Shown here piece by piece: positions 19,978 through 24,618 of a DNA stretch of 64,000 nt. The notes under the pieces are model-generated. The model had not been told where the DNA came from and did not search any database. It saw nothing but the letters and a program-made list of their open reading frames with translations. Positions within the stretch are counted from its first letter, which is position 1. Every line of letters begins with the position of its first letter. The translations under genes and the position numbers were made by a program. This DNA comes from Tautonia marina (GTDB lineage: Bacteria > Planctomycetota > Planctomycetia > Isosphaerales > Isosphaeraceae), in assembly GCF_009177065.1 (NCBI RefSeq), contig NZ_WEZF01000015.1:62001-126000 (forward strand), written 5' to 3'.

Positions 19978-20832
19978 CGCGGGCGAGTCCTTGCGGGGTT
20001 GATCCGGGCTGAGAGGCGATGCGGAACTGTGGAACCGAATTATCGGGAGCGAGCCGAGCAGGGGTCAACCCTGAGCGGATCGAGCCGGTCTCAAGCCCTG
20101 GTGCGCTGGCCGAACCTCGGCCCGGTGCGCCTGCGAGGAGTGATGAATCTTCTGGGAGCGTCATGAGTTGCGGCGATTCTGACGGTTCGTTTCGGGAATC
20201 GCCCCGGCGACCGCCTGGGTTCGTTTCGCGCGGGAGCGTTGGTCGTTGGCCACGGAGGGAACTCGGAGGAGCGGAGGTCCATCGGGAGGGGGTGGAGCCA
20301 CGCCCTGCGCGGCTCGGTGCGCCGGGGAATCGGGGCCTGGTGCGCTTAACAAGGACGGCATGGAATGGCTGATTTTCGTTTCGGCAAAAGGAGTTGCGTC
20401 AACGGTGTCCGGTTCGTTTCGGGAATCGGGCGCCGGGGCGATGGGTTCGTTTCGCGCGGGACGGTTCGGGCGAAATGGGTTTGTTTCGCGCCGAGCAGCG
20501 GGGGGCGATGGAGTTGGCGGCGCGCTCGCGGGCCGATCCTGCCAGGGGCGAGACGAGCCCAGGTCGTTCAGTGTAATTGCGTGCGTGCCGGTGTGCATGG
20601 AATTGTTCGGGGTGAGGTGATCGGTCGGGAGACTCGGAAGGGGCAGTTTCCACGCCAATATGATCGAAAAAATCGGGAGGGGCAGTCACTGAATCCGGGC
20701 AGTGGGACGAGAAGTGGCACCGAGGGGCATGGGGACGGACGTGCAGGCGCCTGGGTGCATCACGCAATGACGCGTGCTAGAATCGGCGAGGCAACGGGGG
20801 GAGAACGCCGAGGTCCACGAGCGGGAAACGTG
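19978..20832. other. Repeat-bearing intergenic region before the MmeI-like gene
   Basis: This 855-base stretch has open frames on both strands, but none has a recognisable product. Its middle part (20184-20495) is occupied by degenerate repeats described separately. The promoter of the restriction-modification gene should lie between about 20600 and 20830. Confidence 0.6.
20184..20495. repeat. TTCGTTTCG-type dispersed repeats
   Basis: GGTTCGTTTCGGGAATCG occurs at 20184-20201 and 20411-20428. Each copy is followed 14-15 bases later by GGGTTCGTTTCGCGCGGGA, at 20217-20235 and 20443-20461. Variants occur near 20373-20385 and at 20477-20495. The two paired units lie about 227 bases apart. Confidence 0.8.
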
Positions 20833-23763
20833 ATGGAAACCGAGCGAGCGCAGGCGTTGGCCGAGTTTGTCGGATGGGCCGGCACTCATCTTTCCGGGGA
20901 TGAGAAGGGGGAGGCGCATTCGTTCCTCGACCGGATGTTCCGCGCCTTCGGTCACGCGGGGGTGCAGGAGGCCGGGGCGACGTTCGAGGCGCGCATTCCG
21001 AAGGCCGAGGGCCGGGGCAAGAAGTTCGCCGACCTGCTCTGGGAAGGGCGGGTCCTGATCGAGATGAAGAAGCGGGGGGAGGACCTGCGCAAGCACTTCC
21101 GCCAGGCGCTCGATTACTGGACCTGGATCACGCCGAAGCCGCCGTATGTCATCCTCTGCAACTTCGATGAGTTCTGGGTGTATGACTTCATCAACCAGAT
21201 GGACAGCCCGATCGACACGGTCCGGCTGCCCGACCTGCCCGAGCGCTGGGGGCCGCTGGCGTTCCTGTTCCCGGAGCCCGAGAAGCCGACGTTCGGCAAC
21301 GACCATATCGCCGTCACCCGCGCGGCGGCCGACCATCTGGTGAAGTGCTTCAACAAGCTCGTCGATCCGAAGCGGGCGTTCGGCCCGGTGCCGAGGGAGA
21401 AGGCCCAGCGGTTCATGCTGCAAACCCTGGTCGCGCTGTTCGCCGAGGACATCGGCTTGTTGCCGAAATATCTGGTGGCGCAACTGCTGGAGGATTGCAC
21501 CTCGCGGCAAGCCAGCTTCGACCTGCTGGGCGGGCTGTTCACGGAGATGAACACGAAGGGCCGGACCGAGGGGGGCCGGTTTTCCGGGGTCGAGTTCTTC
21601 AACGGCGGCCTGTTCGCCGAGCCGGCGCGGATTGAGCTGAACCTGGACGAGGTGGACCATCTGCGGACGGCGTCGAAGGACGACTGGTCGAAGGTGCGGC
21701 CGGAGATCTTCGGCACCCTGTTCGAGCACTCGATGGACCAGGAGGAGCGGCACGCCTTCGGCGCCCACTTCACCACGCCGGCCGACATCATGAAGATCGT
21801 CCGGCCGACGATCGTCGAGCCCTGGCGCGAGCAGATCGAGGGGGCGAAGAATTTGAAGCAACTGGCCGACCTTCGTTACCGGATCTCGACCTACACCGTG
21901 CTCGACCCGGCCTGCGGCTCAGGGAACTTTCTCTATATCGCCTACCGCGAGTTGAAGCGGCTGGAGGCCCGGCTGTACGAGCGGATCGCCGAGCTTTCGG
22001 GCAAGGCCGACCCGACGCAGCGGATGCTCGGCCTGGTGACGGCGCAGCAGTTCTACGGGCTCGACATCAACCCCTTCGCCGTCGAGCTGGCCAAGGTGAC
22101 GATGATGATCGCCCGCAAGCTGGCCATCGACGAGCTGCACATCACCGAGGACGCCCTGCCGCTCGATAACCTCGACGCCAACTTCAAGGCGATGGATGCG
22201 TTGATTGACCCGAACGGATTGCCCGCCGTTTGGCCGCAGACGGACGTGATTATCGGCAACCCGCCGTTCCTGGGGGCCAAGCGCCTGAAGCCCGAGCGCG
22301 GCCCCGACTACGTGAACGCCGTCCGCAAGGCGTATCCCGACGTGCCCGGCATGGCCTATTACTGCGTCTACTGGATTCGCAAGGCCCACGACACCCTGAA
22401 GCCCTGCACCCCCGACGACCCCCTGACCGGCCGCGCCGGGCTGGTCGGCACGCAGAACATCCGGAACAACCAATCACGGGTCGGCGGGCTGGATCACGTC
22501 GTCAAGGACGGGACAATTATCGAGGCGGTGGAGAATCAGCCGTGGTCGGGCGAGGCGAACGTGCATGTGTCGATTGCGAATTGGGTCAAATCACGCGCCC
22601 CACTGTTGTTACCGCCGGAAAGGCAAATTTGGTCCCAAGTTTCAATGAGCCAAAGATTGCCGAATAAGAAATTTGGAAATTCAAAAGCAAATTCTTCTTC
22701 AATCGATTATGGACTAAATCCTAGAGCTTGCGATCACATTAACTCGTCATTATCAGATCAAATTGATGTCGCGATCGCAAAAATTCTGAAATGCAATGTA
22801 GATCCACAACGATCATTTTCGGGTCAAGTTCCTGGCCACGAAGGATTTGTTCTCACACCCACCGAAGCTAGAGATCTACTGGCGGCCAGGAAGGAAAATC
22901 GAAAAGTCATTTGGCCCTTTCTCATAGGTCGCGACATGCTGACCGGCACAGGCCATCCTACCAAGTTTGTAATTGACTTTCAGGATATCGACGTTCTCTC
23001 GGCAAGCGCCTATGTGGAGCCATTTACCCATGTTCGCGAACACGTGTTGCCGACTCGGGAACAAAAGGCAGAACAGGGAAAGACCAGTTCTGGACAGCAG
23101 CGGTCTCATCACAAGCAATTTTTGAAGTACTGGTGGCGACATTCTTTTGATAGACCAGAAATGATTAGGCTGCTCAGCAGAATGCGGCGTTACATTGCCT
23201 GCTCCGATACTACAAAGCGTCCTGTATTCATTTTTGTATCTCCTTCTATTAGGCCAGATCACAAACTCCGAGTGTTTGCATTCGATGACGACTATTCTTT
23301 TGGGATCTTGCAGTCCGGAGCACATTGGCTTTGGTTTGTAACAAAGTGTTCCAAGCTCAAGTCAGATTATAATTATACTTCTAGCAGCGTGTATGATCCC
23401 TTTCCCTGGCCCCAATCGCCCACCCCCGCGCAGGTGGACGCCGTGGCCGAGGCGGGGCGGGAGGTGCGTCGGGTGCGGGAGGAGGCGTTGAAATCGATCA
23501 CCGGGGGACTGCGGGCGGTGTACCGGACGCTGGAATTGCCGGGGAAGAACCCGCTGAAGGAGGCGCATGCGAGGCTCGATCGGGCGGTGCTGGACGCCTA
23601 CGGGTTCGATCCGAAGGGGGATCTGCTGGCGCAGTTGCTCGCGTTGAACCTGGAGGTCGCCCGCCGCGAGCAGGACGGGGAGCCGGTGACAGCCCCCGGC
23701 GTGCCGCCCGGCTATCCCGAGCCCGATCGGCTGGTGACGGACGACTGCATCCGGGCGTCGTGA
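20833..23763 (+). CDS. MmeI-like type IIL/IIG restriction-modification fusion enzyme
   Basis: The 976-residue protein joins nuclease, methyltransferase and specificity in one chain, as in MmeI (919 residues). The N-terminal nuclease has D67-x9-E77-x-K79 (ADLLWEGRVLIEMKK), the exact spacing of MmeI. A helical linker follows. The N6-adenine methyltransferase has motif I VLDPACGSGNFL near 356 and motif IV GNPPF near 475. The target recognition region occupies about 590-855 and the last 120 residues are helical. Such enzymes methylate one strand and cut about 20 bp away. The frame is open upstream to 20365, but the ATG at 20833 fits the family. The specificity region is strongly AT-rich, unlike the rest. 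A solitary-methyltransferase or DISARM-like role is less likely because the nuclease motif is intact. Confidence 0.9.
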   Translation: METERAQALAEFVGWAGTHLSGDEKGEAHSFLDRMFRAFGHAGVQEAGATFEARIPKAEGRGKKFADLLWEGRVLIEMKKRGEDLRKHFRQALDYWTWITPKPPYVILCNFDEFWVYDFINQMDSPIDTVRLPDLPERWGPLAFLFPEPEKPTFGNDHIAVTRAAADHLVKCFNKLVDPKRAFGPVPREKAQRFMLQTLVALFAEDIGLLPKYLVAQLLEDCTSRQASFDLLGGLFTEMNTKGRTEGGRFSGVEFFNGGLFAEPARIELNLDEVDHLRTASKDDWSKVRPEIFGTLFEHSMDQEERHAFGAHFTTPADIMKIVRPTIVEPWREQIEGAKNLKQLADLRYRISTYTVLDPACGSGNFLYIAYRELKRLEARLYERIAELSGKADPTQRMLGLVTAQQFYGLDINPFAVELAKVTMMIARKLAIDELHITEDALPLDNLDANFKAMDALIDPNGLPAVWPQTDVIIGNPPFLGAKRLKPERGPDYVNAVRKAYPDVPGMAYYCVYWIRKAHDTLKPCTPDDPLTGRAGLVGTQNIRNNQSRVGGLDHVVKDGTIIEAVENQPWSGEANVHVSIANWVKSRAPLLLPPERQIWSQVSMSQRLPNKKFGNSKANSSSIDYGLNPRACDHINSSLSDQIDVAIAKILKCNVDPQRSFSGQVPGHEGFVLTPTEARDLLAARKENRKVIWPFLIGRDMLTGTGHPTKFVIDFQDIDVLSASAYVEPFTHVREHVLPTREQKAEQGKTSSGQQRSHHKQFLKYWWRHSFDRPEMIRLLSRMRRYIACSDTTKRPVFIFVSPSIRPDHKLRVFAFDDDYSFGILQSGAHWLWFVTKCSKLKSDYNYTSSSVYDPFPWPQSPTPAQVDAVAEAGREVRRVREEALKSITGGLRAVYRTLELPGKNPLKEAHARLDRAVLDAYGFDPKGDLLAQLLALNLEVARREQDGEPVTAPGVPPGYPEPDRLVTDDCIRAS

Positions 23764-23788
23764 ACGGCGTCCCGTCGATCCCTGGATC

Positions 23789-23903
23789 GGGTGGCCCCGG
23801 TTGCTCGCCAACCGGGGTCGCGAAGCGACGAGAGGTCACGGTGAAGGATTCCGACGCCTCTTGCGGCTGCGCCGCCCCGGTTGGCGCGCAACCGGGGCCA
23901 CCC
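23789..23903. repeat. Nested double palindrome after the MmeI-like gene
   Basis: Two identical 9-bp hairpins occur, CCCCGGTTG/CAACCGGGG, at 23795-23817 (loop CTCGC) and 23875-23897 (loop GCGCG). The outer arms, GGGTGGCCCCGGTTG (23789-23803) and CAACCGGGGCCACCC (23889-23903), also pair perfectly. It may act as a terminator for the preceding gene or be a mobile palindromic repeat. Confidence 0.8.
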
Positions 23904-23995
23904 TTGAATGGAAATGACAGCCTTCGATCGCTCATGTCGGCACGATCCCGGCCACCCCATGACACCGCGTGATTGGCCCCGAACGGAACGCGACG

Positions 23996-24409
23996 ATGGA
24001 AGCACTGGGAGCCCTGATCGTCTTCGTCTTCATGGGCCTCATCATGCTGGTCCTCGGCGGGGGATTCCTCTGGACGTTCTGGGTGCTGATCGACGCATTG
24101 TCGAAACGTTCGACAGGAGGTGCTTCGTTGGAAAAGAGCGCCGAATTCAAGAAGAACCGCGAGAAACGTGAAGCCCAACTGCGGGAGCTTCAGCAGATGG
24201 TCGACGACCTCCGCAAGGCCACCGATCAGATGGCCGAGCGGGTCGAGGCGGCTCGGCGGGCCAATCAGCAGGCCGAACGTCGCGACCGCGACGCCGTGTG
24301 CGAGTACGAGGCCGGCCGAGCCTTGCGTCAGGTCGTCTACGATTCCTCCGATTTGCTCGATCGGATTGATCGGGCGTTCGGGACGCTCGACGACATTGAC
24401 CTTTCGTGA
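23996..24409 (+). CDS. Small membrane-anchored coiled-coil protein
   Basis: The product of about 137 residues has one N-terminal transmembrane helix (about residues 5-35, Leu/Val/Phe-rich with GGGF). A charged coiled coil follows (EKREAQLRELQQMVDDLRK onward), ending DLLDRIDRAFGTLDDIDLS. No known family was recognised. The ATG at 23996 precedes the helix; an earlier in-frame start at 23969 is possible. It lies 92 bp beyond a large palindromic repeat and is probably a separate unit. Confidence 0.65.
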   Translation: MEALGALIVFVFMGLIMLVLGGGFLWTFWVLIDALSKRSTGGASLEKSAEFKKNREKREAQLRELQQMVDDLRKATDQMAERVEAARRANQQAERRDRDAVCEYEAGRALRQVVYDSSDLLDRIDRAFGTLDDIDLS

Positions 24410-24618
24410 GCCGCACGAAAACGGTTTCCGTTCGATCGTGGAGTTCCGAGCGGGAGACGGAGCGGCCTGGGCAGCGCAGATGCGTTTGCGCGGACTGGAC
24501 GCGAATCCCGGGGCAATCGTCGGGAGGGAGGGGCAGGCTCAGTTGACGGGGGAGGCCGGGTTGGCCTACGATCACGGCCCGATGCACCGGGAGGTGGCGG
24601 CGGAGGCAGGGAGGGGCG

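What the first reader, a model, noticed from the sequence alone, without database searches (positions are those of the whole stretch)
22600..23410. AT-rich specificity cassette inside an otherwise GC-rich MmeI-like enzyme
Hand counts of single 60-base rows give about 35% GC at 22681-22740 and about 38% at 23341-23400, against about 75% at 22261-22320 in the same open reading frame. The low-GC block corresponds to the target recognition region, while the nuclease, methyltransferase and C-terminal parts match the genome. This suggests that only the DNA-specificity module was exchanged by recombination with a low-GC donor, which would change the recognised sequence.
Basis: partly seen in the sequence, partly recalled or inferred. 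Interest (0 to 1): 0.75.

Follow-up and report, generated by a model that had tools for sequence, protein, structure and literature searches.

The report
Restriction enzyme with swapped DNA-reading domain
A bacterial DNA-cutting defence enzyme carries a DNA-reading module that came from a different, AT-richer source than the rest of the gene, and the same domain turns out to be mildly AT-rich in almost all GC-rich relatives, which suggests these modules are exchanged again and again.

Summary
The 976-aa gene (20833-23763) is an intact MmeI-type (Type IIL) restriction-methylation enzyme. Third-position GC is 0.91 outside codons 578-857 and 0.43 inside (window 22564-23403), edges sharp to about 10 codons; no other long ORF in about 440 kb of the same genome drops so far. 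The block spans the target recognition domain (TRD) plus about 60 preceding codons, between two conserved motifs. Core and TRD have different histories: the core groups with planctomycete enzymes, the TRD with those of a Rhodocyclales genome and a low-GC planctomycete. So the gene is a chimera with an exchanged specificity module; contact residues predict a site ending ..CAG.

Two corrections. First, the whole gene sits in about 4 kb that two congeners lack at the same place, so the swap may predate its arrival; no donor was found. Second, low GC in the TRD is a family rule: in GC-rich relatives the TRD lies about 15 points of GC3 below its own gene (27 of 28 thinned genes, 31 of 32 distant homologues), at all conservation levels. 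The window (-0.49) is the extreme case. TRD exchange is known; the family-wide shift is the more interesting result.

The parts
20833..23763 (+). MmeI-type (Type IIL) restriction-methylation enzyme, 976 aa, intact
   Evidence: Pfam MmeI_N, MmeI_hel, MmeI_Mtase, MmeI_TRD over cut-off; PADLOC REase_MTase_IIG 1127.8 bits over aa 3-974; PDB 5hr4 E 9e-87 with a profile; model matches 5hr4 with Z 35.5 over 711 residues
20833..21372 (+). N-terminal PD-(D/E)XK nuclease domain; D67...E77-x-K79 present
   Evidence: Pfam MmeI_N aa 5-177; motif read from the translation, invariant in 31 sequences
21400..21846 (+). helical spacer domain
   Evidence: Pfam MmeI_hel aa 190-261
21847..22563 (+). gamma-class N6-adenine methyltransferase domain; motif I DPACGSG aa 358-364, motif IV NPPF aa 476-479
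   Evidence: Pfam MmeI_Mtase aa 339-577; motifs read from the translation
22537..22590 (+). conserved block QPWSGEANVHVSIANWVK at the 5' edge of the cassette (probable recombination anchor)
   Evidence: aa 571-585 is 87-100% identical in all relatives compared, including distant ones; composition edge codons 576-586
22564..23403 (+). AT-rich exchanged specificity cassette (codons 578-857), GC3 0.43 against 0.91 in the rest of the gene
   Evidence: breakpoint fit; separate ancestry; codon usage foreign to host
22756..23418 (+). target recognition domain proper, equivalent to MmeI residues 621-825 (window aa 642-862)
   Evidence: profile alignment to 5hr4 with domain limits from PMC4833311
23263..23373 (+). 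predicted base-contact residues K811, K843, D845, N847 (MmeI 774, 806, 808, 810)
   Evidence: alignment; residue table and covariation of 774 with 810; base rules from PMC4833311
23395..23421 (+). conserved block DPFPWPQSP at the 3' edge of the cassette
   Evidence: codon-level comparison; composition edge codons 855-863
23425..23760 (+). C-terminal helical bundle, host-like composition
   Evidence: model helices 865-947; GC3 0.90; Pfam MmeI_C only below its cut-off
20459..24523 (.). stretch of about 4 kb absent at the same place in congener G003 (and, by gene spacing, G001); holds the enzyme gene and a small ORF 23969-24409
   Evidence: flanks 85.7% and 95.3% identical and colinear in G003, separated there by about 330 bases; gene spacing in G003 and G001

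Best explanation
The gene encodes a single-chain Type IIL enzyme in which one target recognition domain serves both cutting and protective adenine methylation. A block of about 840 bp carrying that domain and the end of the methyltransferase fold was replaced, by homologous recombination in the conserved stretches on either side, with the corresponding block of a diverged relative whose genome was much poorer in GC. Because both activities share the domain, such a swap changes the recognised sequence of both in one step, so cutting and protection stay matched. The chimera is in frame and keeps the catalytic motifs, so it is probably active on a site different from that of its nearest core relatives; positions 4-6 are predicted as C-A-G with the A methylated. 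Shown here: the compositional block, its edges, the different ancestry and the intact frame. Inferred: homologous recombination as the mechanism, a low-GC donor, activity, and the motif. Unknown: whether the swap occurred in this host or before the whole gene arrived.
For: Sharp two-edged GC3 step, unmatched in a 440-kb host sample. Identity to the same-family relative L004 is 0.88 over aa 481-577, 0.41-0.42 over aa 578-760, and 0.73 after aa 858; fitted 5' identity edge aa 585-590. TRD tree joins the window with Rhodocyclales L033 (100/97) and low-GC planctomycete L034 (100/99); core tree places L033 with Rhodocyclaceae L037 (99). AU tests reject L001+L033+L034 on the core (p 3e-43) and L001+L004 on the TRD (p 6e-7). 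The same-genus homologue L006 in an equally GC-rich genome has GC3 0.81-0.95 throughout, TRD included, so low GC is not required by the domain. L034 has GC3 0.36/0.34 throughout, so low-GC carriers of this TRD type exist. Family members occur on a plasmid of Paludisphaera borealis and on nine viral contigs. Residue pair K774/N810 belongs to a minor class: K pairs with N, S or T in 6 of 6 cases, while A, L or T pair with R in most others.
Against: The nearest TRD found is only 65% identical, and about 950 further genomes in the phylum and in the orders of the two TRD relatives gave nothing closer, nor did plasmids, phages or viral contigs, so no donor is identified. GC-poor TRDs are the family norm, so part of the drop needs no recent import. 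The place of the window in the core tree rests on weakly supported forks.
Confidence: 0.85

Rival explanations
1. The whole gene was imported recently as a ready-made chimera; the TRD swap took place in an earlier GC-rich carrier, and nothing was exchanged in this host. (This is a rival on time and place only; it is compatible with the best explanation.)
For: Both flanks are colinear in congener G003 (85.7% and 95.3% DNA identity) without the ~4 kb that holds the gene; G001 also lacks it by gene spacing. Only one other genome of the order (45 searched) carries a close relative, at 64%.
Against: Loss in G003 and G001 would give the same picture. The core composition (GC3 0.91) fits this host well, though many other GC-rich carriers would fit too.
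Confidence: 0.55
2. No exchange: the TRD became AT-rich in place because fast or diversifying evolution weakens whatever keeps GC high in this genome.
For: TRDs are GC-poor family-wide in proportion to host GC, with almost no difference in low-GC genes, as a weakened GC-raising force would predict.
Against: The window lies 4.0 residual SD below the family regression. Its edges are sharp. The two parts have conflicting trees. In other genes the most conserved TRD columns are as GC-poor as the variable ones.
Confidence: 0.07
3. Assembly or binning artefact: two unrelated genes joined in one contig.
For: The genome is a draft of 80 contigs.
Against: The frame is open through both junctions, both junctions fall in conserved motifs at homologous positions, and both ends of the protein belong to the same core.
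Confidence: 0.02

Closest known systems
MmeI and the Type IIL family (PDB 5hr4; PMC4833311)
   Same: Same five-domain order, nuclease and methyltransferase motifs, one TRD shared by both activities; fold match Z 35.5 over 711 residues
   Different: Only about 23% identical to MmeI over the fold match; predicted contacts differ (K-D at 806/808 instead of E-R, K/N at 774/810 instead of A/R); C-terminal Pfam model below cut-off; TRD of foreign composition
TRD exchange in Type I HsdS and domain movement in Helicobacter pylori (PMC3874165, PMC3983042, PMC3077401)
   Same: Specificity changes by recombination in conserved or repeated sequence flanking a TRD
   Different: There the TRD is in a separate S subunit with two TRDs; here it is one TRD inside a single-chain enzyme, and the parents are much more diverged than strains of one species
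L033, MmeI-type gene of a Rhodocyclales genome (JACRLX010000035.1)
   Same: TRD 65% identical, sister in the TRD tree (100/97), same K/N pair at 774/810
   Different: Core belongs to a Pseudomonadota clade; TRD GC3 0.70; A-R instead of K-D at 806/808

Membership tests
MmeI family (Type IIL restriction-modification enzymes) | N-terminal PD-(D/E)XK nuclease domain fused to the methyltransferase | tested here: met
   Pfam MmeI_N 87.8 bits (cut-off 27), D67...E77-x-K79
MmeI family (Type IIL restriction-modification enzymes) | gamma-class N6-adenine methyltransferase with motif I and NPPF/Y | tested here: met
   Pfam MmeI_Mtase 104.7 bits; DPACGSG and NPPF present
MmeI family (Type IIL restriction-modification enzymes) | TRD of the MmeI type after the methyltransferase | tested here: met
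   Pfam MmeI_TRD 53 bits (cut-off 27), aa 664-861
MmeI family (Type IIL restriction-modification enzymes) | C-terminal helical bundle | tested here: met
   Helices 865-947 in the model, structural match to 5hr4 through residue 946; the Pfam MmeI_C hit alone is below its cut-off
MmeI family (Type IIL restriction-modification enzymes) | methylation of one strand only and cutting about 20 bases away | not testable with these tools
   needs biochemistry or methylome data
TRD exchange by homologous recombination | TRD and flanking core have conflicting phylogenies | tested here: met
   AU tests p 3e-43, 5e-4, 6e-7, 4e-5
TRD exchange by homologous recombination | breakpoints in conserved sequence on both sides of the TRD | tested here: met
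   edges codons 576-586 and 855-863 lie in VHVSIANWVK and DPFPWPQSP; the 5' edge is upstream of the structural TRD
TRD exchange by homologous recombination | an identified donor or sister strain with a different TRD (direct proof, not a defining feature of the event) | tested here: inconclusive
   no donor above 65% identity and no sister strain found in the collections searched; sampling is thin

The most novel reading that the evidence does not exclude
Specificity modules of MmeI-type enzymes are held at a lower synonymous GC than the rest of their own gene throughout GC-rich bacteria, because they are imported again and again from an AT-richer mobile pool, or because their alleles are too diverged to pair and so escape the GC-raising effect of recombination. 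GC3 inside one gene would then be a dating and tracing signal for specificity switching. The shift itself is shown here; its cause is not.
Probability: 0.5. Interest if true: 0.65.

Novelty: new member of a known kind. Interest (0 to 1): 0.5.

Why it matters
It is an unusually clear natural record of a specificity switch in a single-chain restriction enzyme, with both breakpoints in conserved motifs, so it shows where TRDs can be cut and joined between very diverged parents. The family-wide GC deficit of the TRD, if it holds in other systems, gives a simple compositional test for module exchange and bears on why exchanged DNA is AT-rich. I found no paper in the searched library that reports it, but that search was limited.

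Tried and rejected
Donor search: phylum (392 genomes), order of L033 (399), order of L034 (161), plasmids by protein and by DNA, phages, viral contigs; nothing closer than L033 at 65%. The second MmeI-type gene of the same genome (L002) as donor: rejected, its TRD is 39% identical. Amino-acid composition as cause: rejected. Low conservation of the TRD as cause of the family-wide deficit: rejected, since equally variable core columns are GC-rich and the most conserved TRD columns are GC-poor. Position near the gene end: rejected, the C-terminal domain is close to normal. Simple mixing with a donor pool of average composition: not supported, since low-GC genes do not show GC-richer TRDs. An apparent extension of flank homology at 20648-20697 scored no better than shuffles. 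A megablast of part of the contig with L002 against plasmids gave no match.

Full report
What the gene is. The ORF at 20833-23763 (976 aa) matches the Pfam models for the MmeI nuclease, spacer, methyltransferase and TRD domains and a PADLOC Type IIG model along its whole length. A profile aligns it to MmeI (5hr4) over nearly its whole length. The AlphaFold model (mean pLDDT 86) matches 5hr4 with Z 35.5 over 711 residues. Nuclease and methyltransferase motifs are intact.

The observation. GC falls to 0.38-0.52 in the block. Fitted on third codon positions, the block is codons 578-857 with GC3 0.43 against 0.91, edges good to about 10 codons. Fourfold-degenerate sites agree. In a sample of 149 long ORFs from the same genome this is the largest such drop, and the block's codon usage lies outside the range of 179 host genes, while the rest of the gene fits the host well.

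Where the edges fall. MmeI's TRD is residues 621-825 (PMC4833311), equivalent to window aa 642-862 by the profile alignment. The 3' edge (855-863) is the TRD end. The 5' edge (576-586) is about 60 codons upstream, at the last methyltransferase strand (model strand 578-585), inside the conserved block QPWSGEANVHVSIANWVK. The intervening stretch includes a poorly modelled loop (606-624) and is the least conserved part of the compared region. So the exchanged unit is the TRD plus its lead-in, bounded by conserved sequence.

Different ancestry. Against its same-family relative L004 the identity is 0.88 just before the edge, 0.41-0.42 in the first two thirds of the block and 0.73 after it. In trees of 84 full-length relatives the TRD of the window is sister to that of a Rhodocyclales genome (L033), then of a low-GC planctomycete (L034), while the L033 core sits firmly among Pseudomonadota. 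AU tests reject the TRD grouping on the core and the core grouping on the TRD. Conflicts of this kind run through the whole tree, for example L033 and L037, which have sister cores and unrelated TRDs.

What it may recognise. Base-contact positions known from MmeI map without gaps over the last part of the TRD. The window has K-D at 806/808, reported to specify G:C at position 6, and K/N at 774/810. In this family K774 goes with N, S or T at 810 in 6 of 6 cases, whereas A, L or T nearly always go with R; K774 with S810 was reported to give C:G at position 4 (PMC4833311). The prediction is ..C-A-G at positions 4-6, against R or G at position 4 for most relatives, L004 included. Positions 1-3 are not predicted.

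When and where. In congener G003 the two neighbouring genes are colinear with DNA identities of 85.7% and 95.3%, and the stretch corresponding to 20459-24523 is missing; by gene spacing it is missing in G001 as well. Only one other genome of 45 in the order has a close relative of the gene. The gene is therefore probably a recent arrival, and the swap may predate it. No donor of the TRD above 65% identity was found.

A family-wide pattern. In 88 relatives the TRD has on average 0.11 lower GC3 than the core of the same gene. In genes with core GC3 above 0.7 the deficit is about 0.15 and is found in 96-98% of genes; the other domains show almost none. It holds at every conservation level and for all amino acids examined, though only slightly for glutamate, with a standardised difference of -0.148. 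In a set thinned for relatedness it holds in 27 of 28. In 32 homologues only about 30-60% identical to that set it holds in 31, mean -0.14, sign-test p 1.5e-8. In low-GC genes it nearly vanishes; regression of TRD on core GC3 has slope 0.78 and meets the diagonal near 0.20. The window lies 4 residual SD below that line, so it is an extreme case that needs an extra, recent import on top of the general trend. Two causes fit: recurrent import from an AT-richer pool, or a weakened GC-raising force in a module whose alleles are too diverged to recombine internally. The present data do not separate them. The thinned sets lower but do not remove the dependence between related genes.

Verdict. The finding is a genuine, well-resolved TRD exchange in a Type IIL enzyme: a known kind of event, with corrected breakpoints, timing left open and donor unknown. 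The unexpected part is the general rule it led to.

Noticed in passing
L002 = G000:C31:30550-33375 (own genome, 46-kb contig): A second, distant MmeI-type gene (50% identical) in the same genome, in GC-poorer surroundings (flank GC 0.56); its core groups with same-family genes, including one on a Paludisphaera borealis plasmid (L007), but its TRD groups with cyanobacterial ones.
   Followed up: partly
window 20184-20456: Dispersed intergenic repeat GGTTCGTTTCG[CG]G: 47 exact copies in the genome against 0 for the reversed control; four copies lie directly upstream of the insertion, and similar sequence is at the empty site of G003.
   Followed up: partly
L207-L236 (Type I HsdS loci of related genomes): HsdS TRD stretches also look GC3-poor (mostly 0.4-0.66) beside neighbouring long ORFs (often 0.7-0.9); a rough comparison only, neighbours not identified.
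   Followed up: partly
window 23969-24409 (+): Small ORF of 146 aa (apparent membrane segment and coiled coil, no Pfam match) inside the same insertion as the enzyme gene.
   Followed up: no
L243-L251 (IMG/VR contigs): Nine viral contigs carry near-full-length MmeI-type genes related to this one, so the family may move with viruses as well as plasmids.
   Followed up: partly
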